Source: Gorsachius magnificus (taxonomy: Eukaryota > Chordata > Aves > Pelecaniformes > Ardeidae). From it: a stretch of DNA of 64,000 nucleotides. The notes under the pieces are model-generated. The model was not told the DNA's origin. It ran no database searches and saw only the letters and a list, made by a program, of their open reading frames with translations. The stretch spans positions 184,099,510 to 184,163,509 of the forward strand of contig CM067081.1 in assembly GCA_034008185.1 (NCBI GenBank). Reading direction: 5' to 3'. How positions within the stretch are numbered: the stretch's first letter is position 1; each line of letters starts with the position of its first letter. The position numbers and the translations under genes were made by a program. Shown here piece by piece: positions 10,393 to 45,060 of the stretch.

Positions 10393-10729
10393 ATGCTGCC
10401 CAGCGCCCTGTACTGGGACCTGGTGGGCTCCTCGGCTCTCCTCAACCTGCCGGCGGCGCCGGGCTTCGGCAACCTGGGCAAAAGTTTCCTCATCGAGAAC
10501 TTGCTGCGGGCCGGGGCGCCGCCGAGCCCTGCCCAGCTCCGTCCCCTCCCCGCCAGCCCCGTCCCTCTCAAGCTGTGCCCCGCGGCGGAACAAATCAGCC
10601 CCTCAGGGGGTCCCTATCCGACAAGATGGGCTTTTCAAGTGCTTAACCCCTCCGCGGCGGACAGCGGCCGCCTGCCAGCGCGGGCTCCGGCGGCGGAGAG
10701 AGGCGGCGTCTTCCCGCCGGCAGCCACAG
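10393..10729 (+). CDS. DBX2: DBX2 coding exon 1
   Basis: This exon encodes residues 1-112 and one base of codon 113. It opens with MLPSALYWDLVG and continues through the GFGNLGKSFLIENLLR motif and the LRPLPASPVPLKLCPAAEQ block, both characteristic of DBX2. It ends at ACAG before a GTGAGC donor at 10730. The exon lies inside the CpG island and is very GC-rich, unlike exons 3 and 4. Confidence 0.95.
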
Positions 10730-16700: not shown

Positions 16701-19700
16701 TTTTCAGTAACTTGGGCTGTGTTTCTTTGAGGTGGGTCATCATATTGGAGGATAAGTGGCCTTTGCTTTGTGCTGAAAAGCTCATGAAAGTTTCCCCTGA
16801 GAGGTTGCCCTTTTCTGAAGTTATACCACATAATTCTGTTGAGGTGTTTTGTATGTGTGTTGAGGATTTAACTCTTCTGCATGGATCTTGGACAGTTTGG
16901 TGGTGTTAAAGTCCACATCCCTGGATTCTTGTGACTATGTGAACATCTCAGATTTCAACTTGAAAAAGTATTTCCTTGTACAAATGTAAAAAGACTAAAA
17001 ACCTCACTTGTTTAAAAAAAATAAGAATCTACCATTTGTTATTTTTTTATTCTAACAATGTTTAGTCAATCTTGAGACTGGTTGGAGCTGGCAATACTGG
17101 AAGAAGGGAAGGTTTTAGAAATTTTAGCTGATCAGTGCATACCACTGCAATAAATGGTGCATTTTGGCTTCTGGTCAGATTTCAAATTAGGGCTGCAACA
17201 ATGAAAAACCAATGAATTGTCCTATCGCAGCATAGGACCCTAATTTTGCCTTGCTTGAGGAAATTATTTCTATACAAATTGTAGTATGTTTAAAATCAAA
17301 GAAAATAACTTTAGTGCCTTTATGGCTGAATTTTATCTTTTTTTACAGCGTCTTTATGGCTGTACAGAAGATTGTATTCTTTTGATGTTACCTATGAAGG
17401 ATAAGAAGAATATCATAATAATTCATCTGTTTAATAAAAAATAGGTGTCTTGTCTAATCTAGTTGCCTAAATACCTTATCTAATCCATAGGCAATACAGA
17501 GAGATGTCTCCAGGGAATGACACAATTTATCTTGTTAGATGTCTATTTTAAGGTGATGAATCATTATATAGAGCTACTTACCTCTTCTCATTGACTGTAC
17601 AGGAGGCCCAAACAAGGAGCTTAGATAGCAGGAGGGTTGGACTAGATGATCTCCCAAGGTCCCTTCCAACCCTTGCCATTCTGTGATTCTTTGAAGTGAC
17701 AGTAATGCCCCTTTTGACAAGAAGTGGTAAGCAGAAAGTGCTGGGGCACACTAGCACATGGGCACCTCCTTCAGGAGAAGGACAAAGATGGAGACGCAGC
17801 TGGTAAATCCACAGTTTTCCAGATCCCTATCTTTCTTCTCAATAGCAAGGCTGTGCACAAGGCATGGAGAGGGTGGAAGCCACCTTTACTGCTGACACTA
17901 GGAGACCCATGGAGTCTTTGGCAAATGGTGTGGGTTTTGGTTGTTACTCTGGGTTGTCACAGAGGTGAAATCTGACCATGCATTGTCACCAGCCTGAGGC
18001 ACCCATGTTTCCTCAGACAGAGAACAAACAATCATACATATACAGCGAATCATGCCCTAATAACAAGGCATGTCGATGATGCCTCTGAAAACTGAGAGTG
18101 ATTCATGTGATCGTAGCTAATCCGCAGCATGACTCTGTCAGCCTCTGCATTGCTATAGATGTAAGGAAACCATGATCATGCTGTTAGCACATTTCAAGCA
18201 CTTTTTGGTGTGACTACTCTGCTAATTTTTGAAAGCCCCACTGAGACCCAAAATAAAAATGCAAGCCCACCTCTTGGCATCCGCCTTTGTGTAGGATTTA
18301 AAAATATATATTTAGAACTTCAAAACCTTTTCTGTGAACGTTTGCCAATATTTTAAAACTGATCCGCGTGTGCTGCTCTCGTCTGCCCTTTTGGCTTGAC
18401 TTCCTTTGAGCATTCATGAGGTTGTGTTTTACAGGAATGAATGGGAAGCGGGAAAGCCAGCTCTGAGGGATGCTGTACCACAGGCTTTGCTTTTGCAGTA
18501 AGCTTTTCCAGGTCCATGTGGTGGTGACTGCCTTTGGTGGCATATGGCAGTGGCTGTTGGTTCCTTCTCATGGCCAGGGGCTGCCCTTCAGCTGGCTGAA
18601 ATGTTTTGGGGGTGCACAACTGCTGCTGGAACATTGCACTCTGAACACAGTAACTGCTGGGGACAGAGCCATGGTTCATTGTCAGGCCCAGGGCTTGTGG
18701 TTCAGGAGCAGAAATGGTGCCGTGTGGTTCAGCTGGATCGCTAATCTGGCAGAGCCGTTGCTGGGCTATTTGCAGAGAGCTCTTCATGACGTGAAACTTT
18801 GTGCAGCCAAGAATGGATGTAGGTAGGAAATTGCAGTTTACTTGTGCCCACTTCATGGACACAAACCATCCAGGGTTCTCGGATGAAATGGGATCATTTT
18901 ACTGGTAATATTTTTAATTTGCCTTCCAGGGCTGGAGCGTGGGCATCACTGTGGAAAGCAGTTCATGTGGGCTTAGCGATGCTTGGGAGAATTAAAGCAT
19001 TCATGCAGCTTGAGGTGTCTCTGTGTCTGTGCTTGCCATTTCTTGTTAGCTGGCTCTAGGCAGTTTTCTGAATCATTCTTTGGAGGTGTTTCAGCTTTCT
19101 TCACAGGTTTATACCACATTTTCATCATTTAGTCTAAGAAACCCCAACAAACTAATAGCATGTGTGGTGAAGGAAGTCTGTATGGGCTACACCAGAAGCT
19201 TACCATCAGTTCACTTTTCCTCAATAGCCATTTTTCCTTCACGCCTTCCCCCTTCCCTGATGGCCTACGGTATTTCCTGAGTCATTTCACAAGACTTGTC
19301 AGCATGACTTTTTAGTATGGGAGGGCTTTTGAATTTAGAATATCTTCAGAGCTGGCAGTATATGTTAAAATATCAGTATCTGAACTGATCTCTGAGTTTT
19401 AGCAGTAGATGAGTTTGAGGTCCATTTGCATGTTTAGTATCATTTTATTGTCTGTTTGTGAAATGCTTTTTATTCACAAAGCTGAATGTAAATGAGCATT
19501 ATTACTAAATTTTTGCGTGCAGCAACTGTGTCAAAAGAATTTATCTTTTGTGAAAAAATAAAAATAAATTATTTATTTAGTTTTAGATATTTCATCCTTT
19601 TATATTTATGACCCAATACATTTTCTTTTAAAGCACGTAGTACAATTTTTGGAGTGCCAAAAGACACTTATACCATACCAATATTTCGTGTTCATGCACC

Positions 19701-22700
19701 TCTGAAGCTAAACCTGTAAAGTCTGACTCTAGTGAAATGCTAAATTCCATGCAGTCTCTGTTTTTATGAAATGGGGATGCAAAGCAGAAAAAGAATTAAG
19801 TATCTTGAATACGAATTATTAGGATTTGGCCCCTGGTTAATATGTACTCCACATGGCTGGAAGCAACAGCTACCTTTTGGTTACTGTGTACTTCATTCTG
19901 GCCAATGAATGCAGAACTAAGATTCTGACATTTCAGCAATTTTCAGCCTTATGTGAACAGCGGACAATGTTTGCTTCAGATCTCTTGACCAACAAGTATT
20001 GGTAGAATGGCCATGATATATGGGAACAGAAAATAAAAGCATAGGCGATGCTCTCTGTATATTGTCCTCAGCACTGATAGGTAGTGTGTCATTCCTACAG
20101 GTACAATCACAGTATAATTCTGAAATACATGTATGTTAAATATATAATTTTTCTCTGAGCAATTTTCATTCTGTTAATGCAGTTTCACGCAGACAGTTGA
20201 AGCCATTTAATGCGATGAATGTTCTCTATTGTTTCTATCAAAGATAAAAAATATGCTTGGATGTGTTAGGTTGAAGCATTAACATTTTTCTCTACACAGA
20301 GCTCTTAAGGTAGAGTTGAGTATCCCTGTATTATGCCAGATTTTTTTACTGATGTAACTGTCCATAACTGCTATGCATTTGTTTGAGTGCAATGGCTTCA
20401 GCAGACGTGACCTGGGGATGTGGTTTGATATACTTAGTGTAGAAAAGGGGGCCTATAGGAAAGACAGGGAAAATCTTTTTAGTAGGGCCAGCTGTGACAG
20501 GACAAGGGGTAATGGTTTTAAACTGAAGCAGGGTAGGTTTAGACTAGATATAAGGCAGAAATTCTTTACAACGAGGGTGGTGAAACACTGGAACGGGCTG
20601 CCCAGAGAGGTGGTGGAGGCCCCATCCCTGGAAACATTCCAGGCCAGGTTGGACGGGGCTCTGAGCAACCTGATCTGGCTAAGGGTGTCCCTGCTCACTG
20701 CAGGGGGGTTGGACTAGATGACCTCTAGGGGTCCCTTCCAACCCAAAACATTCTATGATTCTATGAATTCACTTGTGCATCAGTGTAGTTGGAACACATT
20801 AAAGAAGTTTATGAACTAGATATACGTGTTGGCTGTAGGCTTAGGGAGACATAATGCCATTGTTTATTCCATGGGATCTAGAATAAATTGGTCTTGCAAA
20901 ATGGTCTCGGGGACCATGTGGTTCAGAGATATATGAGGATATCACATGCACCTTATTTCTTAGGCAAATTTTCTGCCTTAAAGGGATATGCACCATGCAG
21001 GCAGAAAAGACAGACTTTGTTGAGGGAATTAAGTAAAATGCCTAAGAAAGCCAGAAGCATGGTTGCCATCGACTCAAGCAGAATTAGTGCCGAGATCTCT
21101 ACTGTTCGCATCATGGTGCTGTGCTAGTGCATTAAGACATTGCCAGCAGCATCCATGGAAATATGTGGCTTGTTTGCAGTTTCCTTAAGCAAAATGTCTC
21201 AAGTTTTGACCCTGGTCTATCTCCTGACCATTATGATTGCAGCTTGCTTGTTGAGAGATTTAGTGAATGGAGAAAACCTACCCTTTCCTATTCCTTTATC
21301 TCTATTTGCAGGAGCATGCTATCTATCTGAAGCAATAGCTTATTCAGTTCTGATTTATCCATGTATCTCCTGGCTGTTTCACATATCGTTATGAGCACCC
21401 CATTTTCAAGAAAGAGCAAAGAACTGGAGAGAGTTAAGAAACCATAATAGGGAATATCAAGGACTGGCCAACATGTCTGAGAAAAGTTGTATGGTATGAA
21501 TAAGGTGCTGGAGCAGTGATTAAAGGGAATAGGGCATTATGGCAGCCAAGGAATATTTGAGACATGTGAAAAGGAAGCAAAGGAATTGAGTGTGACACCT
21601 TCTGTATACGAAGTTGTATTTTTAGAAGTGGAAAGTTTTACCTAACTGTAAGGGAAACTTGATGGTGGCATTAGGAACGTGGCTTGCAAGGAGGGGAGGA
21701 AAAGCTCTTCACCCGTGAGTTTGGGAACTGCAGCAGATAAAACACTAGCAGCAGCTAAAAGATGCTGTCAAGAACAAGCTCTCATGTTCAGAAGGATGGC
21801 TGAGATTATCTGGCAGACCTTTACCTTCTCCATCTCCTGTGCTGCTTCAGTTAGTCAAATCCTTTCCAACTTACACACCCCACCAGCTGCATTGAAGCAC
21901 CTTGGATACGTAAGATAGGTAATATTTGGCTGCACGTTCTTGACTCGTTTAAGCTCCTTGGGACACAGTTCCACATTGGATGGTCTTGTCTGGAAAAGGA
22001 GCTTTAAAATACTAATGCCTGATGTAAATCATTCCTTTTTGTAAATGTTTTGCAAGCATACACCTCATATATAGGCAATTGGTTCCTCTTGGACTATATT
22101 TATATTTCATTAGAAGCTCTAAAGTGTTGATGAAAAGCTGTAGTAATAAAATGCTTATCAATTTGTAATTACAGTTGAAGAAATTTTCACCTAACCTTGT
22201 ATGAATTCAGAAAAAAAATTGAGGTAAATATTTTAAAACTGTTTAGCATTAGGCTTCTACAGCAATAGTTTGTTGCTTTGGAAGATTTGACAGTCAGAAA
22301 ATGTATTATGATGCCCTAAAATGTACTCGGGAACCTAATTTTGAATGATCTTTGGTTTTAATTCCAGTTGGAAAACCTTTAAAAATTAACAACATGGCTT
22401 AGATACATTTATTTGTTTATCTGTCTTCCCAATTATTGATTTCTTAATTTGCAGTTACTTTTTTTTTTCTTCTTTTAATTAAATGGGTTATTACTAGAGA
22501 TTTGGACAAGCTGCAGTACTGCGTTTAGAGCTGTTTATTTTCTACCTAAACCAAAACAGGAAAGTGACATAAATGTTTTGATGCTGATCACATTTTACGA
22601 GTGTACAGCTCTAGCAAGCATGATGTATCTATTTTCAAAAGAAAAAAATATTCCAAGTGTCATAGTTTACTAGTACAAGCAGAAATGAAAATGCAATTAA

Positions 22701-25700
22701 GATTAATGGAAAAGCCCATGAGCTTTACAGAAAAAAATTAAGGAATTATTAGATAACAAAGACCTTTCTAAGATTTGGAAGCACTTTTTTAGACATAACA
22801 GAGACTTTTGATTCAGTGGTTCAAAAAATTCTATAGAAATTTTACCGAATATTACCTAATTCTGTGGGATGATTTTGCAATTTTTTTATTGTATTAAGCA
22901 GAACCTTCTTCAGCAACTGGTTTATTTAAGTTTAGAGCACTTTCCCAGGAAGAATGAGTTTACCATCAGGATAGCAGACTCAGGCCCCTGTAGTTTGTGC
23001 CTGTAGAGCTCAGCTGGATTGTCTTACTGCATTTTATAGAAATTATTCATAAAGGTTTCTTACTTTCTGAAGTCCTTATTGGTTTGAGTACTAATAACAG
23101 CATTGGAGTACAAGCAGAAGAGACCGGGTTCACTTTTAGAGTCTGTTTTTCTAGGATATCATGCTTGCTGGCATTATTTAAAATAACTTTTTCAGATGCA
23201 TTATACTTGTAATTTCAACACCGTATTATTTAAACAATGTGTTCAATTCCAATATTTAGGAAAAACCCCCATAATTACAGCAATTACAGAAGTAAATTTC
23301 AAATCTGCAGAGTGTCATTCTTACGATAAATATATTGAGATTTTTTTTTAAACAATGTAAAACCTTAAATTAAAGAAGGTTTATTGTTTGCCTTAAAAAT
23401 ATCACCATCTTGAAAAAAGGAAAAAAACCTTGTGGGGCAGGACTTTACACACTGACTTTTTGGAGGACTGTTGTTATGAATATCACCTAAGCTCAATGGA
23501 TAATCAGATCTATGCTTTCTTTGCAGCTCTTTCCAAACACTTTTTTCTCCGAGCCCCACCATTCTACTCAGCATGCTGCGGTGGGTCCTGTCAGCACCCT
23601 GCATCCCCCACTGCTTTTCCAAGTAAGTTTTTATGCTTCATCAGTAATGCTTGAGTTATTCTGTAAACCAAAGCAGCAGGATTTAATGTGTTCTGGAAAA
23701 CTAATTGGTGATGCAATGGCAGCAGCTAATTCCTTAGTAAAATCACAGCAATCCTATTCAGAGGGTTTCCAAAGATTTATCAAACTTAAGTACACTGAGC
23801 AATTGTGAGAGGTTTCTAATGGCATTGAGACACCCAGACAGAGCTAACTTAGGAAAGCTCCTTGTTTTCAGTTTGCTAGAAAAGGTTCTTTAAAATCAGT
23901 AGCTCTTTTAAAAATCTGTCTCAATAAACATTTGCAAATAGGAAGAGAAAAGAGCTGAAAGATCTTAAAATGGATGCTGCATTTTAATGTCTGTTAGGGA
24001 TAAATTATGATTCAGGAAGCCTTAGCATTATTTAAATAAAACAGCCATTCTTTTTGTAGGAGTCAAAAGCATGCACATGTTTAATTTGTTTTTCCTTTTT
24101 AATTATAATGTAAAAAACTGAAGAAGTAAGTTGAAGAGAATTTTGGCCAGCATACATATATACGTTCAGGATTAAGACCTGGCACACACTGCCATTTACT
24201 CCAAATCCAAATTTAACCTTGATTGTGAAGTTTGCATGCCATAGTGTAAGAATAGATATTCATATTTTATGTGTTTATGGCTCAGGAATGCAAAGAGAAG
24301 AGGCATGTCCTAGTCCTTCAAAACAGAGAAAAAGCACATATCGCCTTGCAAATCCAAATGAAGATTGGAGCTTATGTGTGCTCTAGCATATACTTTTTTT
24401 ATCACAGTTACATTCAATCCCTTCCTGACTATGTGCATGCGTTTTATGAATGTTTCAGAAGGGCAGTTGCTAAGTTGAATGATTCTTGACAAGTGAGGCA
24501 GCAAATGCTGGCAGTTTAATGAGCTGCAAGTTTCTGAGCACCTCTTTAGGGGGCTGACACTTTCCCACAGAGCGTTTTACATGGCCCCAGCTCTCCCACA
24601 ATGGCTGACAGCACCATGACCAATCACCACTTTCACTTTACTCATCCACACGCGACCTCACCACAATTTTTCACTGTGCAGATGAACTTTAGGAACCATT
24701 TCACATTGAAAAGGCCTGGGCAAGGGTCAGTTGCCCTTTTGTATGGCCATAAAGCAATACTCTATGTGCCAGTCTTTTCTCCTGTCTCACATTCCAAGAG
24801 ATTTTCTGGACACCATTTAAAGCACTTGACTGAAAAATAAAGCAGTGAATGAAACTGACTTTTATAGACTCATTCTAGCTCATCTTCCCATATAACCCTG
24901 TCTACCTGAAAAGGGATTTAGTGGATGAGCTGAGTGTATACAGGGACTTGCTGAATACATAGGCCCATTATCAACTGTGGGGATTGTTTATTAACCAGGA
25001 CTGATACACTACTATTTTGGAAGTGACCTATTAATTGTCCATTTAACTAGAATGTATTGAATTCAAATGAAAAAATGGAAACCATGACTAAAGCTTTTAC
25101 TTGCTCCTTCAAGGTGGTCTCTGCCATGAAGGCAAATGAAGATTGTTCCACAGATTAAGAGGACATTTATCACTATATATTAGGATACAAAGGGAAGACT
25201 TAAAAAAAAACCAAAGCAAAACAAAAATCAAACCAGCAACATAGGAAATAGTAGGTAGCAGATTCACATTTATGTCAGCAGAGCACTAAACCTTTTCATG
25301 CACATTCTGAGCGACAGGCTGCAAACTGACTGATTTCATTTTGGTAGAATTGTTGTAACATATGAACGACTGCCTATCCTGATGTACTGAAAAATCCTTT
25401 GATCCACAAACTGAAATTTAGGTTTTGTGTGAACAGTTGGAACGCACTTTGGAATTTGGGGCATTTTTAAAAAAAATTCTCTAGGCTAGTCAACTGGGGG
25501 TGAGTATTCATTATCCCAAACGTGAGTTTCAAATTTTTTGACCCAGTGTCTGTTTGCTAATGCTTGTGAGCATGCTGCTCATCATTAGATTTTGTTTAGT
25601 TAATCTTTTAAAGTCAGTCATATACTGTGCCTTAAAGTGTGTAGATTCTTCACTAGCAAGTTAGTCTAATGCAGGTGTTAAGCTGTACCCTAGATACTGC

Positions 25701-28700
25701 CTGTATGGGAATTAACTGGTGCCCCAGGGCTCCTGCAGGAGGTTGTTTCTTTGCTCATTGACTGTTAACAACCAGCCAGGCAAGACAGATTTTAAGGGGT
25801 CACACAATCTGACGTCCTCTGTCCTTGGCTGACAACTCCATTGTGGAATGGAGGCCAGGAGGCGAGGACCAGCCCTGTCACGCCTCTTCCCTCACTGGTG
25901 TCCCTCATCCCATGGTGGGGATGAGAAGAAGGTACCAGCTCTTCTGCTGTCAGACTATATCTTCCAGTAAACTTGAGAATGGCTGATGATCCATCAAAAT
26001 CTGCGCAGAGGCTACCTGGAAAAAGGTACCTAAATTCACCAAATTTGAGCAAGAAGGAGAGAAAACATGCTTGAGGAAGAAGGGACAGTGTTTGCCCCCA
26101 GCTTCATGGGCAGGGTGGGAACTCAGGGTGGGTGTCATGAGGGGGCTGTGTGCTCCTCAGAGAAATGCAAACCTGGCTTGCCCTTTGCAGAGACCTCCAT
26201 TGTGGCATTTTGGCTTTTGTGCTGCAGATAGTTTATTTTGATTTGGATGGAGTCTGACTGTGTCTCACTGTGTCATAAATATCAGGATAGTAGCCAGTAG
26301 GTTATGATTTTTGTATCTAGTCTGAGATATAATTTTGAAAATTGAAAAACATCTATATAAATTTAGACTTATTTATACGGTAACATTTTAAATCAGAATA
26401 ATTAATTTTTGTCAGAGGCTGTTATGGGGGACAAATACAAAGATGGGTTCTTGAAGCATAGAAAAATTCAAGAAAGGCACGTCTAGCAGAATGCAATGGT
26501 CTTTAAGTCAGTAATGTTTGACAGTGACAGTGTATTTTAGGGAAGGATCATTGCACACTTGCTCAGCTTCTGAAATTCTTCCTCTACTGGTCACAGCTGG
26601 AGGCAGGATACAGGGGTAATCTATGTAATATCAAACCAGTCACACATGTACCACAAAAGTATTTAGTCAACTTTGCAAGACATACACACTTCAGTTTCTC
26701 ATCGTTATACATACACAGTTCTACAATATCCTCAGTATATGTTTGTTTCTCTGTGGGTGTTGAAAGATCCACATACCCATGTGTATATATGTATAATATA
26801 CAGAAGTTGAAATGTGGTGTAGCCCCAAGGAACAGTTTGTGAAAGCTGCATCTGGATTCAATGAGTATTTTTAAGAGCATTATATCCATTGAACACATGT
26901 ATTTACCCCACCCCTGCTACAGCTGAGTAGAATAGATAGACTTTTTCATGAAAGAATGTGCAATCTTTCAGAGAATCTGCTTTACATGGGAATTTTGCCA
27001 TTGGCTTCAATATGAAAATGATCCTTTACAGAAATCAAACAGCAGCACACCTTTGCAGCTGCTGTAACTATAAATTGGGATGGCAATCTTGGCCCATGTA
27101 CCCATGGTGGACAACAGGAGGACAGCTTGCACCTGTAGAGTCTAGCTTGCACATGGTACCCACCAAAGCGCTCTTCGTGGCTGCTCTCTCACAGAAAGAT
27201 TGTGGGTGTCAGTGACTATATAGCCATGGCACAGGTTTGTGAATCAAGGGGCAGCTCTTTCCTGGCCTGCTTGCAACTGCCCCATGCAATTATCACATCC
27301 AACACTTGGTGACAGGCCCTATTCAACTGGCCTCTGGTACTGCTCCCTGGATGAGCATTTGGGGAAGCTGGGAGTGCTGGAGGTGTACCAAGCCTCACCA
27401 GGGACTGCTCCCCATACACCACATTCTTCTAGGGGAGAGGGAGCATGGGAAAGCACTATGGCTTTAGGCTTTATTGAGCGTAAGGGAGGCAAGAGATTTA
27501 TCTAGATTTGGGCTTTCTGTGCTCTTTGTGAGGCCAGTGAAGGGACAATACAAATGCTTCTGCTTCTCCACTGCAGCTCTTTCCGCCAACTTTGAGGCTG
27601 TTTTCCAGGGTGGGGTTCCCTCTAGGCATGGATCAAGGGGATGTAATTGGATTCATTGATAACTGCCCTCCCAGGACTTGCTATGAGATGTCAAAGGATT
27701 AGAAGCCAGGGTGAAAGGAGTAAGTTCAAATACTCCCCAAATCCTGTAATAAAGAAATTGCTGCAGTTTCCAGAATGAGTAAGTGAATAGCCAGAGATTT
27801 TCCGAGAAATAGTTCACTCTGAAAACCTTTCGTTAGTAAACAAAACTAAAGAAAGCCTATTTACTTTCTTTCAATCAGTATTACAGACCACTTTTATCTG
27901 GTTCTACATTTCACATGAGAAAATAAACTCCTAGGAAAACTTACTGCAGTTTACTCGATAATGTGCAAAGGAAAGTGGAAAAGTTTCTCCCTGAGTATAT
28001 TTGAATTTTACAGTAGCATGGGCCCTGTTTTAATGTTCCTCTATGAACTCATCTGATTTACTTTTTACCATGTCAAGGGGAGACTTTTGACCACTGACAA
28101 CACCTCTAGATCCAAGTGAGGATTTAGTCCTTAATGAACATGACTGAAGCATTACGACACACTTGTAACGCCAACAAATCAAAAGTGGCACAGTCTGCTA
28201 GCATTACAATGAACAGCACTTAATATTTTTCTGATATGTGTTAGATATAATGTGAAACTCTCATCCATTCCCACTAGGAGAGGAAAGTGTCCTGCCTCTT
28301 CTGACCCAGGAGTCTAACTCCAAAGCCCGAAGAGGTATATTAAGAAGAGCTGTCTTTTCCGAAGACCAGAGGAAGGCTTTGGAGAAAATGTTTCAGAAGC
28401 AGAAGTATATCAGTAAAACAGACAGGAAGAAACTGGCCATTAACCTGGGTCTAAAGGAGTCTCAGGTAAGGAATGACAGAACATCTGCGACTTCTTGTCT
28501 TTTTGAGGAAAAATCTTTAAAATGGCTTTGAAGGAGGAAAATCGAGCAGCACAGGGGCAGCCCTGAACTCCTTCACTAAGAAAAGACTTCAGTAAATCAG
28601 TGGTAGTTTTAACCAAGGAGTGCTTGAACAGGTTCCTAGTTTATTTCCTGAAGGTATTCATTCAAAAATTGATTGTTCCATTTTCACAGAAAGTGGGAGA

Positions 28701-31065
28701 AACATGACCTCTGCATTTCATTTCCAATTCCCATTTTGCAGAACCCCCTCAGGAGCTTTGGCATGGGGAACTATGCTCCACCCCACTGCCTGATAGACTG
28801 ATCCAGACAGAAAACGGCAGAGCATAGAGCTCTCCTGCATTCCTCTGAGCACCCTGTGCAATTGCAGGTGAACAGCTAGTGACAATGCAATCAACAGCAC
28901 TGCTCTGAAACCATTCTCCCCCAAGATACAGGCAACCGTTCCTACAAAAAAAAAATTAGCTGTACAAGGAAAGAGATCCTCAGAGAGCTGAGAGAAATTC
29001 TAGAAAGAAAAATTTTGCAGGTCACCTTCTAAAGTGCTCCCACTTTACTTACCAATTCACATTTCATGGGATTTTTCATGAGTCTGATCTGGCCTACTGC
29101 AGGACTAGAGTTTAGCTGAGGGTCTAATACCTCCAGTGAGCTGTTCTAACTGAACGAGTATGTTAATGGTGGTGCCGAGTGGCGGTAGCCCAATCTGAAA
29201 TCTCAGGGCCCTGACCTTAGCTGCAGATATAAACAAAGGAGAAGTGCCCAGCTTGTAGAGCACAAAACCTGATACAAACTGAAAAAAAAAAGTTTGTGAG
29301 GGGATGTAACAGCAGAAAATGAACGTGGTAGCCACTGGCAGCTGGGATTCTGAGGGTGCTGGAGTAGACGCAGATCTCTAGGGTACAGCTGAAAGAGAGA
29401 GTGACAGTACAATTTTATTTCTTTGCATGCAGCAGGAGTAAGAGGTTAGATCTTGTGGTCTGCAGTGGTTCCTTGCAACCTGAATGACTCTGACTCCATC
29501 GCAAGCACTGCAACTGTAGACAAAAAAAGCAGCACAGTGTGGTGCTTCTCAGTGTGATGAAGAGAGCTGTAATCTCTGCAGGATAAACGATTTCAATGAA
29601 AATGTCCAATTGCACTCACCAGTGCGCTGCCTAAAACTTTCCCAATATGTAGTCAAATTCCTAATATTAAAATAATTTTCTTGAGTTTTTCTTCTGCGTT
29701 CTTGATATTCAAGAGAGCCTGGGGGAGTAAAAAATAATGGAATGATACATAGATAACAACTACCTCTACAGGAAAATAATTTCATGATAATGAAAGACCA
29801 GATAATATCTGTGTGTCTCTCATTTTTTTTTTCTCTTACGAAAGGAAGAGCAGTTGCTGTGAAGGTTACTTCTTCAATTTTCTGACCAGTTGTGCTGGAG
29901 GAGCAGTACCTGCCATTTAAGGCAATGATTCTCAAACCTTTGAAAGCATAGCCCCTTTGTTTTCATATCAAGTATCTGAATACTAGAACTAAATGCAAAT
30001 ATTTAATGGAAAAATAGAACACAATCTGAATAATTTGATTGACACTGCCCCCCATTTATTCTCTTTACGTAAAACCAGTTCCTAGATGCCTATTTTCCCA
30101 AGCTTTTCCCAGCATTTCATAAATGCATTTGAATGCTTGTGATCAAGCTTTGCAACTCAAAGTTTTTGAAAAATGGATTTTATCTCAAAAGCACATAGAT
30201 TCTAGGCAATTCCTGGAAAACTGTAGTCAGGCAGACAAAATGTCTTTAAATCCTCACTACTGTGTCTTATGTCATAACACACATTTTGAAGCTGTATGGC
30301 CAAGCTGGTTTTAGCTATGCTTGTGAATGGGACAGTCATAGTTTGTAGAGCCTCTTCTAAATAGAAGGCTTCAGATCACCAGTAATATCACTTAGTTTTG
30401 TTAGTGATGATGTGAATTTACTCTGAGAATCCTTTTCTGTCTAGAAGGATGGTGCTATAGGAAATTGCTCTATCCCTAGTCACTGGGCTGTTCTTTTTCC
30501 AGCCTAAGGCAAATAATCACCTTTTTGAGGTGACGAAAGTCAAGGAGAGTATTTGGCCCAGCTGTAGTAAATAGTGATGGGAAAATCCTCAGATAATGTC
30601 AATCAGTCAACTTCACTGGATCTACTATAACAATGAATAAGGAAGGGACATGAAAATAAAGCGGTGGAAAGAAAAAAACCTCTTGTTAGGGCAAAGTTGT
30701 TTAAAGAAAGGAATGATAATAAACTCTCATTAACTTGCAAACAGGTGAAAATTTGGTTTCAGAATCGAAGGATGAAATGGCGAAACTCCAAAGAAAAGGA
30801 AGTGCTTTCAAACAGGTGCCTCCAAGAAGAAGGTCTTCAGGAGAACTACCTCTCACGGTCCACCATGAATTTTACCTCCCCGTGCCCATCTGTGTGGGAA
30901 GTGTCTCAGGAGCAGGCAAGTCCAAGGTGGAGAGAGAATTCTCCAGGAAAGTCTGAAAGACTGACTAGTACACAACCACCTCCAAGAGCAAATTCATCGC
31001 AGAGCCCGCTGTATTTGTATCCTGACCAAGACACTGCAAATAAGGCAGTTACATCATCAGCTTAA
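10393..31065 (+). CDS. DBX2: DBX2 homeobox transcription factor, complete four-exon coding gene
   Basis: DBX2 is a nuclear homeodomain protein of the developing brain homeobox family. The family patterns interneuron progenitors in the ventral and intermediate neural tube, largely as repressors. The four coding exons are 337, 96, 188 and 321 bases and join with phases 1, 1 and 0 to give 313 residues plus stop, slightly shorter than the mammalian protein of about 339. Residues 32-38 (FLIENLL) form an eh1-like motif that can recruit Groucho/TLE co-repressors. The homeodomain spans about residues 164-223, with the recognition-helix residues W211, F212, N214 and R216 intact and a following basic MKWRNSKEKE stretch. 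The conserved cysteine-rich PPFYSACCGGSC block is in exon 2. All introns are GT-AG. The start was chosen because MLPSA and the following residues align with the family and have G at -3. No break is seen, so the gene should be functional. Confidence 0.96.
11300..11336. repeat. Two A-runs separated by a C-rich spacer
   Basis: Runs of 13 A (11300-11312) and 12 A (11325-11336) flank a short 'cccaaacccacc' spacer. The tract lies just inside DBX2 intron 1, beyond the GC-rich island. It is low-complexity sequence with no associated retrotransposon body. Confidence 0.8.
17625..17694 (+). mobile_element. CR1 LINE 3' tail, heavily 5'-truncated
   Basis: The fragment has the CR1 terminal block 'ggttggactagatgatctc' and 'cccttccaacccttgcc', ending in an ATTCTGTGATTCT-like short repeat instead of poly(A). 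Only about 70 bases remain. It is a dead insertion in DBX2 intron 1, in the same orientation as the gene. Confidence 0.85.
20440..20766 (+). mobile_element. CR1 LINE 3' fragment
   Basis: The fragment encodes the CR1 ORF2 C-terminal end: DRTRGNG, then RFRLDIRQKFFTTRVVKHWN and GLPREVVEAPSLETFQARLD. A 3' UTR with 'gggttggactagatgacctc' follows, with terminal ATTCTATGA repeats. It is 5'-truncated to about 330 bases. It lies in DBX2 intron 1 on the same strand as the gene. The 3' end is clear; the 5' border is approximate. Confidence 0.92.
23527..23622 (+). CDS. DBX2: DBX2 coding exon 2
   Basis: This 96-base exon encodes residues 113-144. It includes the family-specific PPFYSACCGGSC segment and ends with PTAFP and one base of the next codon. 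A good acceptor (TTTCTTTGCAG) precedes it and a GTAAGT donor follows. Its 96-base length keeps phase 1 on both sides. It is too short to be found by frame length alone and was identified from its similarity to DBX2. Confidence 0.95.
23623..28277 (+). other. DBX2: DBX2 intron 2
   Basis: This 4.65-kb intron runs from a consensus GTAAGT donor to a CCCACTAG acceptor. It is AT-rich, and I recognised no repeat family or further exon in it. Confidence 0.85.
28278..28465 (+). CDS. DBX2: DBX2 coding exon 3, first part of homeodomain
   Basis: This 188-base exon encodes residues 145-207. It starts with REESVLPLLTQ, then ARRGILRRAVFSEDQRKALE, and continues through helices 1 and 2 of the homeodomain (about 164-207). 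It stops at KESQ, immediately before the recognition-helix VKIWFQ motif. The donor is GTAAGG. Splitting the homeodomain at this point is typical of the family. Confidence 0.96.
28466..30744 (+). other. DBX2: DBX2 intron 3
   Basis: This 2.28-kb intron has a GTAAGG donor and a GCAAACAG acceptor. It interrupts the homeodomain between residues 44 and 45 of the domain. No repeat family or additional exon was recognised. Confidence 0.85.
30745..31065 (+). CDS. DBX2: DBX2 coding exon 4, recognition helix and C-terminus
   Basis: This exon encodes residues 208-313 and the TAA stop. It begins VKIWFQNRRMKWRNSKEKE, the complete recognition helix and basic tail of the homeodomain. A serine- and proline-rich C-terminal region follows, containing the conserved SPRWRENSP. 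The 3' UTR end is not certain. ATTAAA variants occur at 31198-31203 and further on, and an AATAAA at 33638-33643. Confidence 0.96.
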   Translation: MKIWFQNRRMKWRNSKEKEVLSNRCLQEEGLQENYLSRSTMNFTSPCPSVWEVSQEQASPRWRENSPGKSERLTSTQPPPRANSSQSPLYLYPDQDTANKAVTSSA

Positions 31066-35514: not shown

Positions 35515-36291
35515 TGCCAGGCAAGTGTCAGGTGCTGCACCTGGGGAGGTCGAAGCCCATGCACCAGTACAGACTGGGGGCTGACCTGCTGGGAAGCACC
35601 TCTGCCAAGAGCGACCTGGAAGTCCTGGTGGAGAACAAGCTGACCATGAGCCAGCAGTGTGCCCTTGTTGTCAAGAAAGCCAATGGCATCCTGGGGTGCA
35701 TTAAGAGAAGCGTGGACAGCAGGTTGAGGGAGGTTATCCTCCCCCTCTACTCTGCCCTAGTGAGATCACACCTGGAGTACTGTGTCCAGTTCTGGGCTCC
35801 TCAGTTCAAGAAGGATGAGGAACTCCTAGAGAGAGTCCAGAGAAGGGCTACAAAGGTGATGAGGGGATCGGAGCATCTCTTCTATGAGGAAAGGCTGAGG
35901 GAGCTGGGCTTGTTTAGCCTGAAGAAGAGAAGACTGAGAGGGGATCTCATAAATACTTACAAATATCTTAAGGGTGGATGTCACAAGGACGCAGCCAGAC
36001 TCTTCTCAGTGGTGCCCAGTGACAGGACAAGGGGCAATGGGCACAAACTTAAATGTAAGAGGTTTCAGTTGAATGTGAAGAAGAACTTCTTTACCTTGAG
36101 GGTGATGGAGCACTGGAACAGGCTGCCCAGGGAGGTTGTGGAGTCTCCTTCTCTGGAGATATTCAAAGCCTGCCTGGATGATGTCCTGTGCAAGCTGCTC
36201 TAGGTGACCCTGCTTTAGCAGGGGGGTTGGACTTGATCGCTGGAGGTCCCTTCTAACCTCTGCCATTCTGTGATTCGGTGTGATTCTGTGA
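35515..36291 (+). mobile_element. CR1 LINE 3' fragment with open ORF2 C-terminus
   Basis: This is a 5'-truncated chicken-repeat-1 LINE of about 780 bases. One open frame (to the stop at 36203) gives the region after the reverse-transcriptase core, with [68 protein letters not shown] and [14 protein letters not shown]. The 3' UTR 'gggttggacttgatcgctgg' and short TGATTC(T)GTG terminal repeats follow. The frame is uninterrupted, so it is younger than the 47-kb copy. It lacks the endonuclease and catalytic reverse-transcriptase domain, so it cannot move itself. Confidence 0.95.
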
Positions 36292-37744: not shown

Positions 37745-37784
37745 TACGGTTGATGTCCCAGTCACCTTACAATTTGCTCTAAGA

Positions 37785-37975
37785 GCCACCTGCCCATGGG
37801 GCCACAGCCACCTCCTGCCAGCAGGACCACGGCCACCTCCCGTGGGGCCACAGCCACCTCCTGCCAGCGGGGCCATGGCCACCTCCCATGGGGCCACGGC
37901 CACCTCCTGTCAGGGGGGTCACAGTCACAGCCACCTCCCGCGGGGCCGTGGCCACCTCCTGCCCGTGGGGCCCTG
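37785..37975. repeat. GC-rich minisatellite with 46-base dimeric unit
   Basis: Eight consecutive units each begin GCCACCT and alternate between a long form of about 25 bases (gccacctcctgccagc...) and a short form of about 21 bases (gccacctcccgtggggcca). They make a higher-order unit of about 46 bases repeated four times. One unit is extended to 31 bases by a local 'tcacagtcaca' expansion. The long frames on both strands here come from the repeat and are not genes. Confidence 0.85.
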
Positions 37976-39325: not shown

Positions 39326-40302
39326 TTGTTCCTCTGTTCCATGTAAATGTATCTTTGAAACGCTTTCCTGCTGAGTTTCTCAAGCCCAATTCCAGTACTG
39401 TTATTAAATAATCATCAGCGTTTTACTCTCCATTCTTGGCAGCCCGAGCTCTGGCTACTGTCAACAACCATCCAGGTCAGGGGAGGCCAGAAAGGAGCAT
39501 TCAGGGATGAAATAGTCAAGAAGATGAAAGATAAATCCATGTTGATTATAAATGCTCATTCAAATGGCTCATTTAGGATTGGAATGCAAAGATATTTTGC
39601 TCTATGAATGCCTATCAGCACCGCCCCACTGCTAGGAAAATGTGATGGCTATAAAATACCTATCAGCTTTCAGATTATCTATTTGCCATAGAGTTTGTCA
39701 GCATTACAGTAAAACCCAAGCCCTGGGTCAGCATGTGTTATGGGAAAGAGACTTCTTGCTACATCAGCCATACCCGGCCCTCAGACTGAAATGGTATTTG
39801 GACCAGAATTCTGACTTCTTACCTTTCATATACAAACATTTTCTTTAGGTGTTTCCCCTGAAATCAGTGAAGCCATTACAGGTATAAAAGAGCATTGAAA
39901 ATGCATAAAAGTGCTAGAAACCAGAACTGACGGAGCACATGTCAAAGCCCGTAGAAATCAGTAAGAAGTGCGATGTGAACATAGAAGTCTCCGTGGGCCC
40001 TGCAGTTAGATGAACTGATCAACAGCAATACCACGCCTCCGTGTTAAGTGATATTCTGCAGGTATGTATGTAGAAATGGGGGGAAACCTTTTTTTACATA
40101 AAAATATACTTTATTTATAGTATGTAGATCTATTTGTACCAAGGTTAAACAAACTGAATTTCACTTTCAACTATGCACGTAACTAAACTGTGAATCAGCT
40201 GTAATATTATCTGTCACAGCGTAATGTGCAAGGACATTTATTTATCTACCACTAGAGTACTCCTTTTCATCTGGTGTGTTAACCCACATACACACATGAT
40301 GC
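39326..40302. other. Unassigned DNA and probable PRL2 3' UTR end
   Basis: No coding feature is recognised. Additional minus-strand AATAAA motifs at 40242-40237 and 40115-40110 could extend the PRL2 3' UTR. Confidence 0.5.
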
Positions 40303-40463: not shown

Positions 40464-40658
40464 TCAACAACTATTTTCTGGCATAATCCTACATTTGAGA
40501 ATTTTTAAGTAGCTTTGTACTTTATTGGAGTCTCTCCTGAAACAGTGAATAAAGTCAGAGTCACTCATCGTGTTTGCTTCATTACTAATTGATAAACCAG
40601 CAGCTTCAGAAGATGCCATTCCATTTAACGAATTGCTGATGATCCCCATTGACTGCAT
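40464..40658 (-). CDS. PRL2: PRL2 last coding exon
   Basis: This exon encodes 64 residues plus TGA. It follows a pyrimidine-rich acceptor (TTTTCGATACAG) and opens at MQSMGIISNS. It contains the family signature CFRRDSNKVQSYLKILKC, with two cysteines, and the terminal cysteine in ENSC. In prolactins the equivalent segment has His in RRDSHK; here it is Asn. The opening ATG is internal and is not a translation start. Confidence 0.93.
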   Translation of the reverse strand: MQSMGIISNSLNGMASSEAAGLSISNEANTMSDSDFIHCFRRDSNKVQSYLKILKCRIMPENSC

Positions 40659-43600
40659 CTGTATCGAAAAGAGGAAAAGAAGTACAACTTGTAACTACAC
40701 CTACAAAAGATCTTTAAAATACTAGTGCAGACATCAACCGAGGCATCACTGTGCTGGGCTGCTCAACCCCAGACCTTTTGCGTGCACATTGACAGTAGGT
40801 GCAAAGCTCCCTTACAGAGAACAGCGTTGCCTTTTTATCTTAACGGTGCCTATACAACCTAAAGGCTAGCCTGAAATGATCTGACATACTAGAAATGCAA
40901 AAATACTGGAGTATAACTCCATCTGAATTTAAATAGAGGAACCCCTGTTTGGTAATCATTATTTCCTCTTGAACTAATATCGCAAATCAGTCTTGAGATT
41001 TGTAGCCATTTGTTTTAATGAGTTTTGTCAAGGGCAGCTTCTAACGGGAGCACTCGCAGTGCCGTTTAACCTGGTGAACACTGAAGGCTGTTATCACCTC
41101 TCAGAGGTCTGAGCTTCACAGCAGAACCAAGCTTAGAATTAGTGTCTATCAGGTAAACATGGCTGCAAAACTAATGGGATGCATTTGCATTGTTTGCTTC
41201 TTTTTTAAAATTCTATTTCTACTGTGTGGTACGTCCACAGTACAGAGAGGTCAAAACTTCAAAGCTTTCCTTCTTAGTAATTCCTTCAAAGGTGTTTTTG
41301 AAAAATAAAATCAGGTAAATACACCAGAAGTGTGTATCTAGTTTAGAGTTTGATGAAGGTCGAGCTTTGAGGTTGAATACCCTGAACTTTAAGGCCATTT
41401 TAACCCAGAAACATGGCTGCACTTGGAAGATGGGCTTTGCATCCATAACTTGGAGTCACCCTGATCAGGGCTGCATTTCAGAGCAGGGTACAATTCCTCC
41501 TATTCTGGTGATGAGCTGCTTATCATTTTAAAACTGGTATTCCCCGCTTGTGTTCATAAAGCTGAAAGGTGATCTGCTGGTGTGAGGTGTTAGCTTATAA
41601 TTCACTTTTCAGTGCAACAGACGCCTTGGCAGTGTAGCCATTTCAAAGGATGGACACACAGCCCTCCTTTGTTTAGCCAAAACTACAAATAAGTTTAGAT
41701 ATGAATGCACAAGAAATACAAAGATCAGGAATCCTAGCTAGTAATGAGATGGCAGAAATGGAAATAACAAAAAATTACATCCAATAATTTATATATGATC
41801 TGCCAGAATTCAGATTGGAGTTTTGAGATTGTTTTGTGCCTGGCATCTGACTTAAGCAATGCCACTGCCGTCTTGAAGAACTTATCCCAGCATGAAATTG
41901 TTGCCTGAGGAAGGAGCTCTTTGCAGCAGACAGCAGTCATACTTGAATTAGTTAGAATCTAAATCCAAATAAAACTGAAAACAATAATGAAGTATTTGCC
42001 ACGGTCTACCCACATCTCCTCTACTGCCCTAGAAAAGCCAAACCATTACTGGCTGATATAGGAAGCTGTAAATAGCTCTAGTCTTTGTACTTGTGTCTTT
42101 CTTTCATGTATTTCATATGAATAAAATATCGCTCTACACATACGGACATACATAATGCCATCTACCTATCTGCCAATCCAGAAACCAAGTCATATCCTTC
42201 AGCTGAAAAATTGCCAGACCTGTAACTAAGCCCACTGTTGGCTGGATCAGAGCCTCTGTTGGCATTAAGGCTACAGCCCAAGTGAGAGCAGACATTGCCC
42301 CCCTCCCACTCCCCACCCCGAAGTTGCTCCCACCACATGACTGGTATAAATAAACGCTACATTGAAAATCTTGCCTTTTCTGTTACTTTTTCAACTCCAG
42401 TCTTCAGCTCATGTACCATATTGCTGATTTGCTTAGCTTTGCTAAGGCTGTCATCAGGTAGCTCTTGATGGTGCTCAATATGCTGGTTAAAGTGGGAAAG
42501 TGGTTCTTTCCAGGCTTGCAAAAGTTTCAGTATCAAGTGAGTCAGCTCTTCCCTCTTACAAATGAAAAGAGTAAAGAATTTCTCTGTTAGTTTACAGCAA
42601 GTCGTATGAACAGTGTTAGTCTCACTGTGAAACCTCAGCAGGGTTAAGATTTACATCTGCAATTCAGTCATTTTCAAACATTCAGAACTTAAGGACCACT
42701 CCGTCTCTGGTTATTTGCTTAGACATAAGCAACACCCAAAAGTTGTATTTGCCTTGCTTTCAGCTTTCTTAAGACTCCTAAGCTCTGCAATACCTAAAAC
42801 TGTAGAGTACAGCATTAGGAAAATGGTGGCATTTCTGTCAAACTTACTTGGTACTGGGAAAGTTTTTGGGAACTCCTAGGTGTCTCAAGAGCCCAAGGAG
42901 CTCCATCTAGAGGTCTCTGTTTGCTGGTGGGGAATTGCAGGTGCTTGCCGGCACCCGCCGTGGCCACGGCCGCGTTGGCCAGAGGTTCACGGCAGGCACA
43001 CTTCCAGGAAGGTGCCCAAGGGTCACGGCGGCTGCTTCTCTAACAGAAACTCAATGGCTGTAAGCCCTCTCTTGCAACATGAGTTCAGAAACACGGTTGA
43101 CTCCTTAAAGCTCTCTAAATCAGGCAGGGCCCCATTTCCCTGTGTCCCTCAAGGGAGGAAAGTGTTTTCCTAAATGTCTTGGGGGAAGCTCCTCACTCTG
43201 TCACAACTGAAGAGCAAAACGTTAACATTTGCCTCTGTCTGTCTCCTCCTAGAGTTTCTCCTGCTGCTGTATCCTCGACTTTACAATGTTTTTTGCTGTC
43301 TAAAGAAACACTTCCTGCTCATCTTGGAACTGATAATGATTTTTTTTCTCTTTACCATTGCATCTGTCTAAAACAATTTGCTGTTCTTTTCTCCTTACCT
43401 AACTACTGGTTCAGAGATAATGACTGTTACTTCTTTCTCCTGATTGCTTTTTGTACTTCGCAGTGACACTGATTAATTTAACTTATCTGTCACATGCAGA
43501 GTTTTCTAAGTTTCTCTTCCACAGAGACTGCCACAACAAAATCAGACAGCTATCTGTCTGTCAGTCATTTCGGCCAAGTACTGCTGCAATACCTCTGTTA

Positions 43601-44348
43601 TAACTAATAAATACGATGTAAGTGTATGGAACCGTATACAGCTTTTTTAATAGATTCATGTGCAATACCTCTGTGATGTGCACCTGTTTGGGGTCACAAC
43701 TTACCAGCTTCTGCAGTCCAACTGTTGATGAAGCACCGGAGGCATGAGAACCCCTCTGCCTAGCTCCAGCCTGACCGGGGCGGGGGACAACCACAGCCTG
43801 ACAGGTGAGGCATTTGGGGGCTCTGACGGGACAGGGGGTATTTTCCCCTTTCTTCAGGTGGGGGAGAGGTGGCGGTGTGACCCGCGGAGCCCCTCTCCAG
43901 CCCCCCAAACCCGCGGGGCCCCCCCGCCCGCCCCGTCTCCCCCCGCCGTCCAACCTTACCGGGATTTTTTGGGCGTATTCTTTGCCGTTGGGGGTCGGCA
44001 TCCCCGACGTGTGGCACTTCCGAGCGGGCTTCCCCAGCTCGTTGTCACGGGGAGGAAAGTGTTTTTCCTATGGGGGAAGAAAACCTAAAGAGACACCGAG
44101 AGCACCCACGCACCCACCCACCCACCCACCGCCCCACGCACACCCCCGCCCCGCCGGCAGCCGCTCCCGGGGCGGCGGGGCCGGCTCGGTGCTCACCAGC
44201 TCGGCGTAGAGCGCCGTGGAGAGGCTGTGGATCCTGCCCGAGTGCCGGATCACCCGGTCGAAGAGATCGGCCACGGTCAGGAGGCGGCCGCCGGCGTCCC
44301 GCGGGGCGCAGACCAGCAGCCACAGCAGCGCCAGCGCCGCGGCGGCAC
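40464..44348 (-). CDS. PRL2: Prolactin-like hormone (PRL-L / PRL2), exons 2-5; exon 1 unresolved
   Basis: This is a secreted four-helix-bundle hormone of the prolactin/growth-hormone family, expected to act through class I cytokine receptors of the prolactin-receptor type. Four exons of 152, 108, 180 and 195 bases join in frame (phases 1, 0, 0, 0). The 108- and 180-base exons are exactly the sizes of prolactin exons 3 and 4. They encode 210 complete codons: a hydrophobic signal core (LALLWLLV), helix 1 (VADLFDRVIRHSGRIHSLS), the conserved KCHTS, PxPNGK segment, LLQAWKEPLSH, and the C-terminal HCFRRDSNKVQSYLKILKCR signature ending ENSC. Four cysteines remain after the signal peptide. The extra N-terminal disulfide of tetrapod prolactin is missing, which separates it from PRL itself. 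No N-glycosylation sequon is seen. The start-codon exon is not resolved. The gene is tail-to-tail with DBX2. Confidence 0.9.
40659..42374 (-). other. PRL2: PRL2 intron 4, GC-AG type
   Basis: This 1,716-base intron begins GCAAGA (minus strand, 42374 downward) after exon sequence GAAAAG and ends in ATACAG. The first two bases are GC rather than GT; the rest of the donor fits the GC-AG class. The exon boundary is supported by the 180-base family length and an open phase-0 join. Confidence 0.75.
42375..42554 (-). CDS. PRL2: PRL2 coding exon 4
   Basis: Exactly 60 codons, from REELTHLILKLLQAWKEPLS to ELKTGVEKVTEK. It aligns with the prolactin segment (LSLIVSILRSWNEPLYH to the end of helix 3) and has the same 180-base length as exon 4 of prolactin genes. 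The acceptor is TTCATTTGTAAG. The donor is the non-canonical GCAAGA. No cysteine is present, as expected for this segment. Confidence 0.93.
42555..43959 (-). other. PRL2: PRL2 intron 3
   Basis: This 1,405-base intron has a GTAAGG donor and a TTTGTAAG acceptor. Composition shifts within it from the GC-rich 5' part of the gene to the AT-rich 3' part. No repeat family is recognised. Confidence 0.85.
43960..44067 (-). CDS. PRL2: PRL2 coding exon 3
   Basis: Exactly 36 codons, beginning EKHFPPRDNELGKPARKCHT and ending NGKEYAQKIP. The 108-base length equals prolactin exon 3. KCHTS corresponds to the conserved CHTS that supplies the first cysteine of the large disulfide. The acceptor is CCCCCATAG and the donor GTAAGG. 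The exon is too short and GC-rich to be noticed from frame length alone. Confidence 0.93.
44068..44196 (-). other. PRL2: PRL2 intron 2 with CACC/GGGT tetranucleotide tract
   Basis: This intron is only 129 bases long, with a GTGAGC donor and CCCCCATAG acceptor. It contains a (CCCA)n-like run at about 44106-44131 on the plus strand. It is unusually short for the prolactin family. Confidence 0.85.
44197..44348 (-). CDS. PRL2: PRL2 coding exon 2, signal peptide and helix 1
   Basis: This exon supplies the last two bases of a split glycine-type codon and then 50 codons. The hydrophobic AAAALALLWLLV is a secretion-signal core, followed by CAPRDAGGRLL and helix 1 (TVADLFDRVIRHSGRIHSLS) ending LYAEL. 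The acceptor is CTCTCCCCAG and the donor GTGAGC. It enters in phase 1, as exon 2 does in prolactin genes. It is about 30 bases shorter than typical prolactin exon 2 because the N-terminal disulfide loop is absent. Confidence 0.9.
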
Positions 44349-45060
44349 CTGGGGAGAGCCCGGCGGCGTCGGGGGGCGCGGGGCGTCGGGGGGGCCCCCC
44401 CCGGCCCCGGCCCCGGCCCCCGCCTCCCCTATAAATGCCGGGCGGGGATGTGTGTGGCGTGGGGGGGGTCTCCCGGCCATGACGGGTCCCTCCCCGGCGT
44501 GCGCAGCCCGCGACCGCCGCCAGCCAGGCCGGAGCGGGGCTGCCGGGAGCGTCCCTCGCCCCGACGGGGCCCGTCCCCGCCCCCGGCAACCCCAGCAGCC
44601 GGCGGAGAGCGGCTCCCGGGCGCCGTGGTGGGGCTGCAGCCGCGACCGCCCGCCGTGGGGCCGGGGCTGCCCTGGTGTGGGTGTTTCGGCCCCCCCCGTG
44701 GGCTGTGAGGGGGGCGGCTCCGGCGGCCGCGCAGCAGCGGCGTGGGCAGGTCTGCAGCAGCAGGGCCACCGCCGCCGGAGGGGCTGAGGTGTGGGGGCTG
44801 AGAGCAGGCGGAGGAGCTAAGCTGGTCAGTGGTAACGGGGGGCGCATGCAGGACCCCAGTGGGGGGCACGAGGGGCAGGAGAGAAGCCTGGCCTCATGAC
44901 ATTCACCTCTTCACCGTCTCTTCTAATCACACGGTTAAGATCAGATCTGCTTCTGGTCAGAGGGAAGACCACTGAAGGTGTGATGGCTGGGGACTGCATG
45001 CTCGGTGCTGCAAGCGTGCCTGCAGGTCGCTGGCGATGCCCCATATGGCTGAAAGGTTAA
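44349..45060 (-). promoter_or_regulatory. PRL2: CpG-rich 5' region of PRL2, exon 1 and promoter not resolved
   Basis: The GC island covers about 43730-44880 and includes exons 2 and 3. A TATAAAT at 44430-44436 reads in the plus direction; on the minus strand it is only TTTATA. A weak exon-1 candidate is 44999-44915 on the minus strand. It has an ATG at 44999, a stop-free phase-1 frame and a GTGAAG donor at 44914, but its peptide does not resemble other prolactin exon-1 sequences. The true exon may lie further upstream. Confidence 0.35.

What the first reader, a model, noticed from the sequence alone, without database searches (positions are those of the whole stretch)
40464..44348. Prolactin-like hormone gene, tail-to-tail with DBX2
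Four minus-strand exons with exact prolactin-family lengths and phases encode a PRL-related hormone that is not PRL itself. It lacks the N-terminal disulfide and keeps four cysteines. A prolactin-like/PRL2 gene is known in non-mammalian vertebrates but is absent from mammals. Ordinary frame-based annotation would miss it because three of the four exons are under 200 bases and two are buried in a GC island.
Basis: partly seen in the sequence, partly recalled or inferred. Interest (0 to 1): 0.75.

Follow-up and report, generated by a model that had tools for sequence, protein, structure and literature searches.

The report
Bird prolactin-2 (prolactin-like) hormone gene
This is the bird copy of a known second prolactin hormone gene (PRL2, also called PRL-L), sitting next to DBX2 in what is probably a turaco; it is an ordinary gene with a few details worth correcting, such as an unusual splice site and a missing first exon.

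Summary
Four minus-strand exons (152, 108, 180, 195 bases) join without a frame break into a 210-residue prolactin-family protein (Pfam Hormone_1, E=6e-42). DBX2 (four exons, plus strand) ends 9.4 kb away, tail to tail. The protein is orthologous to PRL2/PRL-L: it falls in the PRL2 clade and matches 157 of 159 residues of the "prolactin-like" of a turaco, against 57 of 159 for the highest-scoring classical PRL fetched. The gene has been known in chicken since 2009-2010 and is modelled in many birds, so it is not new.

Three points need changing. (1) The first exon, with the start codon, is not found: a TATA box begins only 87 bases before exon 2, with a G8C7 run between. (2) Four cysteines is not a PRL2 trait. 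Other PRL2s carry an N-terminal cysteine pair; here the first Cys remains at the end of the signal-peptide core and the second is Gly. That core lies about 8 residues closer to the hormone in 19 of 19 Neoaves compared and 0 of 26 other PRL2s. (3) Intron 4 has a GC donor; all 38 read-through bird models among 124 proteins fetched have Ala (GCN) there, so it looks ancient in birds and fits the many mis-spliced models.

The parts
44430..44435 (-). TATA box (TTTATA) of the likely PRL2 promoter; its first base lies 87 bases before exon 2
   Evidence: by eye the same box is read through in protein models of other birds (..GIYK.. in P0004..RVYR.. in P0124)
44349..44429 (-). Stretch where exon 1 (start codon) is expected; holds (GGGGCC)3 and a G8C7 run and no ATG; its 3' end matches the intron-1 tail of the crane model P0121
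44197..44348 (-). Exon 2, 152 bases, signal-peptide core and start of helix A; enters two bases into a codon, GT donor
43960..44067 (-). Exon 3, 108 bases, GT donor
42375..42554 (-). Exon 4, 180 bases; donor of intron 4 is GC (AAG|GCAAGA)
40464..40658 (-). Exon 5, 195 bases with the stop codon; carries three of the four cysteines of the family core (the fourth is in exon 3)
40237..40242 (-). Candidate poly(A) signal AATAAA (others: ATTAAA 40307-40312, AATAAA 40110-40115)
10393..31065 (+). DBX2, four exons: 10393-10729, 23527-23622, 28278-28465, 30745-31065; tail-to-tail neighbour
   Evidence: gene name recalled from the human protein; homeodomain shown by Pfam

Best explanation
This is the avian orthologue of PRL2 (PRL-L, prolactin-like), in a neoavian bird closest to turacos. 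It encodes a secreted four-helix cytokine that most likely acts outside the pituitary by dimerising the prolactin receptor, as PRL2 does in assays on other species. Shown here: gene structure, family membership, orthology and neighbourhood. Inferred: secretion, receptor, tissue. The N-terminal disulfide loop of other PRL2s cannot form here (second Cys is Gly) and is probably lost from the mature hormone in Neoaves at large, where the signal-peptide core lies about 8 residues closer and reaches the first Cys. Exon 1 is most likely missing from the assembly at a G/C run, not from the animal.
For: Hormone_1 E=6e-42; PRL before GH in solved structures; 289 homologues at E<=1e-3, the ten with the lowest E-values all birds at 87-96% identity; 157 of 159 identical to Tauraco against 57 of 159 for the highest-scoring of 120 PRL1-type proteins fetched; starred PRL2 branch (98/90) that holds the window and excludes all 17 PRL1 rows; splice phases and core exon lengths; DBX2 tail to tail; signal-peptide and Cys comparison over 45 proteins; PRL2 activates the PRL receptor (PMC2702173, first part of the text and passages).
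Against: No start codon or exon 1 found in the window. No expression data. Receptor and tissue come from other species. The cleavage site rests on a simple (-3,-1) rule; scanned without regard to the core, that rule also allows cuts before the first Cys, at -20 or further up, inside or ahead of the hydrophobic core, in the window and most Neoaves. The window's own genome could not be searched for PRL and GH.
Confidence: 0.93

Rival explanations
1. The gene is a recent pseudogene in this species: exon 1 with its start codon has been deleted from the genome.
For: The TATA box begins only 87 bases before exon 2 with no ATG between them, and the nearest upstream ATG that can reach a phase-1 GT lies 549 bases from exon 2, above the TATA box, with a start unlike other birds; the second N-terminal Cys is lost.
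Against: Exons 2-5 have no stop or frameshift, and exons 3-5 match Tauraco at 157 of 159. The TATA box is kept. The junction is a G8C7 run next to (GGGGCC)3, a place where assemblies often collapse (inference).
Confidence: 0.1
2. It is classical PRL (PRL1) or a GH copy.
For: Same superfamily; one search lists human PRL as the best solved match, and none of its 16 matches is named PRL2.
Against: The highest-scoring PRL1-type protein fetched matches 57 of 159, against 157 of 159 for avian prolactin-like; the tree puts it inside PRL2; bird PRL1 is a different protein, returned separately.
Confidence: 0.01
3. Exon 1 lies elsewhere: the species uses another, more distant first exon and promoter.
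For: The usual place holds no start codon.
Against: Crane and chicken-like read-through models place exon 1 close upstream of exon 2 (P0121, P0124, read by eye), and the TATA box is kept here.
Confidence: 0.04

Closest known systems
Chicken PRL-L / PRL2 (XP_416043 in PMC2702173; Wang et al. 2010, seen only as a cited reference)
   Same: Same gene by tree position of Galloanserae models (P0013, P0016, P0018); the published gene has five exons
   Different: The chicken model P0123 keeps the N-terminal Cys pair and a longer stretch between signal core and first Cys; it lacks four residues (ALYA) near the end of exon 2
Tauraco erythrolophus prolactin-like (P0020, partial RefSeq model)
   Same: 157 of 159 residues identical, covers exons 3-5
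   Different: Partial model without exons 1 and 2; two substitutions
Phaenicophaeus curvirostris prolactin-like (P0008)
   Same: The only one of 19 neoavian models compared with Gly in place of the second N-terminal Cys
   Different: 149 of 160 residues identical from exon 3 on; its model has an ATG just upstream that may be exon 1 (by eye)
Classical prolactin (PRL1) and growth hormone
   Same: Hormone_1 fold, the four core cysteines
   Different: 57 of 159 identical for the highest-scoring PRL1; separate clade

Membership tests
PRL2 / PRL-L | Hormone_1 domain over the whole mature chain | tested here: met
   E=6e-42, residues 7-210
PRL2 / PRL-L | Falls in the PRL2 clade, not PRL1 or GH | tested here: met
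   Starred branch 98/90 with 20 PRL2 rows plus the window, against 17 PRL1 rows
PRL2 / PRL-L | Five exons, four introns | tested here: inconclusive
   Exons 2-5 with family phases found; exon 1 not found
PRL2 / PRL-L | Three disulfides (six cysteines), as reported for all PRL2s in PMC2702173 except shark | tested here: not met
   Second N-terminal Cys is Gly. The same departure is seen in P0008, and the first Cys is Ser in P0064, both bird prolactin models of this group, so this does not exclude orthology; it looks like a derived state
PRL2 / PRL-L | Conserved neighbourhood beside DBX2 | tested here: inconclusive
   DBX2 is tail to tail here; the neighbourhood in other species could not be read with these tools
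PRL2 / PRL-L | Activates the prolactin receptor | not testable with these tools
   Reported for PRL2 in PMC2702173
PRL1 (classical prolactin) | Highest identity to PRL1 orthologues | tested here: not met
   57 of 159 for the highest-scoring of 120 PRL1-type proteins
GH | Closer to GH than to prolactins | tested here: not met
   E=1.2e-14 for the best GH against 3.8e-33 for the best PRL

The most novel reading that the evidence does not exclude
In the common ancestor of Neoaves a shortening of exon 2 by about 8 residues moved the PRL2 signal peptide onto the N-terminal disulfide loop, so that the mature hormone lost the loop and came to resemble the two-disulfide plan of GH and teleost PRL. The stranded cysteines then decayed on their own: second Cys to Gly in this bird and in a malkoha, first Cys to Ser in a swallow. 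The loop would thus have been lost once more in the family, in a clade of some ten thousand species (number recalled), with possible effects on receptor binding. (Odds lowered from 0.5 in my draft, because the wider scan shows rule-permitted cuts further upstream.)
Probability: 0.45. Interest if true: 0.35.

Novelty: already known. Interest (0 to 1): 0.2.

Why it matters
The gene is known, but the comparison gives two usable corrections. A GC donor in intron 4, apparently as old as crown birds, would explain why many automatic bird PRL2 models are mis-spliced at the exon 4/5 junction. And four cysteines should be read as a change within birds, not as the mark of PRL2. Both are easy to check in transcripts and would improve work on extra-pituitary prolactins in birds.

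Tried and rejected
Classical PRL or GH was rejected by identity and tree. The claim that annotation misses the gene was rejected. A search for exon 1 in the 4.15 kb upstream, printing only ATGs within 1.2 kb of exon 2 that reach a phase-1 GT within 130 bases, gave four candidates, the nearest 549 bases away; by eye none resembles the MA..RAAGRAG start of other birds. Rfam found nothing in the window at gathering cut-offs. Of the ten sequences given to Pfam, eight other long reading frames of the window gave nothing and a CR1-like frame gave only a weak sub-threshold hit; most of the window outside these frames was not scanned for genes. Paper searches for DBX2 with prolactin and NELL2, for prolactin 2 with Neoaves, disulfide and signal peptide, for prolactin-like with turaco, and for GC-AG intron with prolactin listed 1, 3, 0 and 2 papers. 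By title none treats avian PRL2. The nearest, PMC10016047 on passerine GH, was checked by passages and names prolactin 2 only in its reference list. Only open-licence papers are held, and the key PRL-L papers of 2010, 2013 and 2015 were seen only as cited references. No structure prediction was run.

My first signal-peptide scan started two residues beyond the hydrophobic core, so in Neoaves it could not have found a cut before the first Cys; I repeated it without that limit and report both.

Full report
What is there. On the minus strand, exons at 44197-44348 (152 bases), 43960-44067 (108), 42375-42554 (180) and 40464-40658 (195 with stop) join into an open frame of 210 residues; exon 2 begins two bases into a codon, as expected after a phase-1 first intron. 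The translation matches Pfam Hormone_1 at E=6e-42. Its best solved relatives are prolactins (E=3.8e-33), with growth hormones from 1.2e-14. Three candidate poly(A) signals follow the stop.

Neighbour. DBX2 lies on the plus strand in four exons (10393-10729, 23527-23622, 28278-28465, 30745-31065) that splice into one frame ending in a stop; exons 3 and 4 carry a homeodomain (E=1.4e-21). The name DBX2 is recalled from the human protein. The two genes face tail to tail, with 9,398 bases between their stop codons.

Which prolactin. A search of 5.8 billion proteins gave 289 matches at E<=1e-3. Of the best 120, which are listed, 99 are named birds, 9 reptiles, 9 ray-finned fish, and one each a coelacanth, an axolotl and an unnamed source; several of the fish are named prolactin 2. 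From exon 3 on, the window matches 157 of 159 residues of Tauraco erythrolophus (P0020), and 57 of 159 for the highest-scoring of the 120 PRL1-type proteins listed. A tree of 39 rows (20 of the 124 PRL2-type proteins fetched, 17 of the 120 PRL1-type, human GH recalled, and the window) puts the window in PRL2 at 98/90 and PRL1 apart at 96/95. One row I had put with PRL1 because of the search that found it (P0238) is named prolactin-2-like by its source; it fell with PRL1. GH sits on a very long branch and serves only as outgroup. The host is therefore a neoavian bird, most likely a turaco or close kin (inference; taxonomy).

Known already. Huang et al. 2009 (PMC2702173; first of six parts read, passages) describe PRL2 in non-mammalian vertebrates, identify chicken XP_416043 as PRL2, and report its absence from mammalian genomes, receptor activation, and expression in zebrafish eye and brain. 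[quoted passage not shown] The PRL-L papers of 2010, 2013 and 2015 were seen only as references. The gene is therefore a known orthologue, and mechanism and tissue are carried over from that work.

Missing first exon. Several other bird models begin MA..RAAGRAG in a short first exon. The crane model P0121 reads through intron 1 and shares the run GGPPRRPAPPDAAGL with the window just before exon 2, and the unnamed chicken-like model P0124 shows the TATA box upstream (by eye). In the window the TATA box (44430-44435) begins only 87 bases before exon 2, with (GGGGCC)3 and a G8C7 run and no ATG between. By hand reading of P0124 I estimate roughly 180 bases in the chicken-like sequence, so about 90 bases including exon 1 seem to be gone. 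I favour assembly collapse over deletion, but cannot decide.

N-terminal loop. I compared 45 of the 124 PRL2-type proteins, all those with a DLF-type motif at helix A. Two teleosts (P0116, P0118) were missed because they read NLF; by eye both carry the Cys pair. The other 77 lack the region or the motif. Clade labels of the unnamed P0016, P0122 and P0124 are mine, by resemblance. Counted from that motif, the first Cys is at -14 (-15 or -16 in four turtles and one agamid) and the second at -7. The pair is present in 8 of 8 Galloanserae and tinamou rows, 9 of 9 reptiles, 9 of 9 fish and amphibians, and 17 of 19 Neoaves; it is broken in P0008 (second Cys is Gly) and P0064 (first Cys is Ser). The window has Cys at -14 and Gly at -7. 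The hydrophobic core ends at -12 to -14 in 19 of 19 Neoaves and in the window, but at -22 to -28 in the 26 others (my rule lets Cys and Ala extend the core, so in Neoaves it runs over the first Cys).

Cleavage by the (-3,-1) rule. Scanned without the core condition, 18 of 19 Neoaves and the window also have permitted cuts upstream of the first Cys, the nearest at -20 or further up except P0010 at -17; these fall inside or ahead of the hydrophobic core, which makes them unlikely but not excluded. P0008 has none. The loop is thus probably, not certainly, absent from mature neoavian PRL2; in the window it cannot form in any case. The rows are not independent, passerines are over-represented, two Lonchura and two Vidua rows are near-duplicates, and several N-termini are read-through predictions.

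GC donor. Exon 4 ends AAG|GCAAGA. Of the 124 PRL2-type proteins, 46 join VTEK to MQSM (or its fish equivalent) as here, 28 jump from GVEK to SMG, which fits a GT lying 12 bases inside exon 4, 32 read on as K-ARF, and 18 fall in none of these classes. Among the 18, six more also read past the exon end (P0069, P0092, P0094, P0103, P0109, P0111); four jump from GVEK elsewhere, three skip exon 4 in part or whole, four stop or leave the frame earlier, and one is a teleost. In all 38 read-through models the first residue is Ala (GCN); a GT donor would give Val. They include a tinamou (P0072) and an ostrich (P0114) besides many Neoaves, so the GC donor is probably as old as crown birds. This is read from protein models, not DNA, and the 38 share ancestry.

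Verdict. Interest is low overall; the GC-AG intron and the neoavian N-terminus are small points for which the few paper searches made here found no earlier report, in a library that lacks most subscription journals.

Noticed in passing
42363-42374 (donor of intron 4): GC splice donor AAG|GCAAGA, apparently conserved across birds, linked to mis-spliced automatic PRL2 models.
   Followed up: yes
35481-36203, plus strand: Reading frame of 240 residues resembling the end of a CR1-type retrotransposon polymerase (name recalled; Pfam gave only a weak sub-threshold hit for its first 166 residues); a similar-looking fragment at 20358-20714 gave no Pfam hit.
   Followed up: partly
37784-37972: GC-rich minisatellite (46-base and 98-base periods) between DBX2 and PRL2.
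   Followed up: no
44103-44141: CACC tetranucleotide array inside intron 2 of PRL2.
   Followed up: no
about 44490-44517, minus strand: Promoter stretch upstream of the TATA box reads GRGLRTPGR in one frame, much like read-through models of a flycatcher (P0004, DRGLRTSGR) and the chicken-like P0124 (GRGLRTSGR): a possibly conserved promoter block, noted by eye.
   Followed up: no
P0123, P0016, P0018 (fetched proteins): Galliform PRL2 models lack four residues (ALYA) at the end of exon 2 that the window and several other birds have.
   Followed up: no
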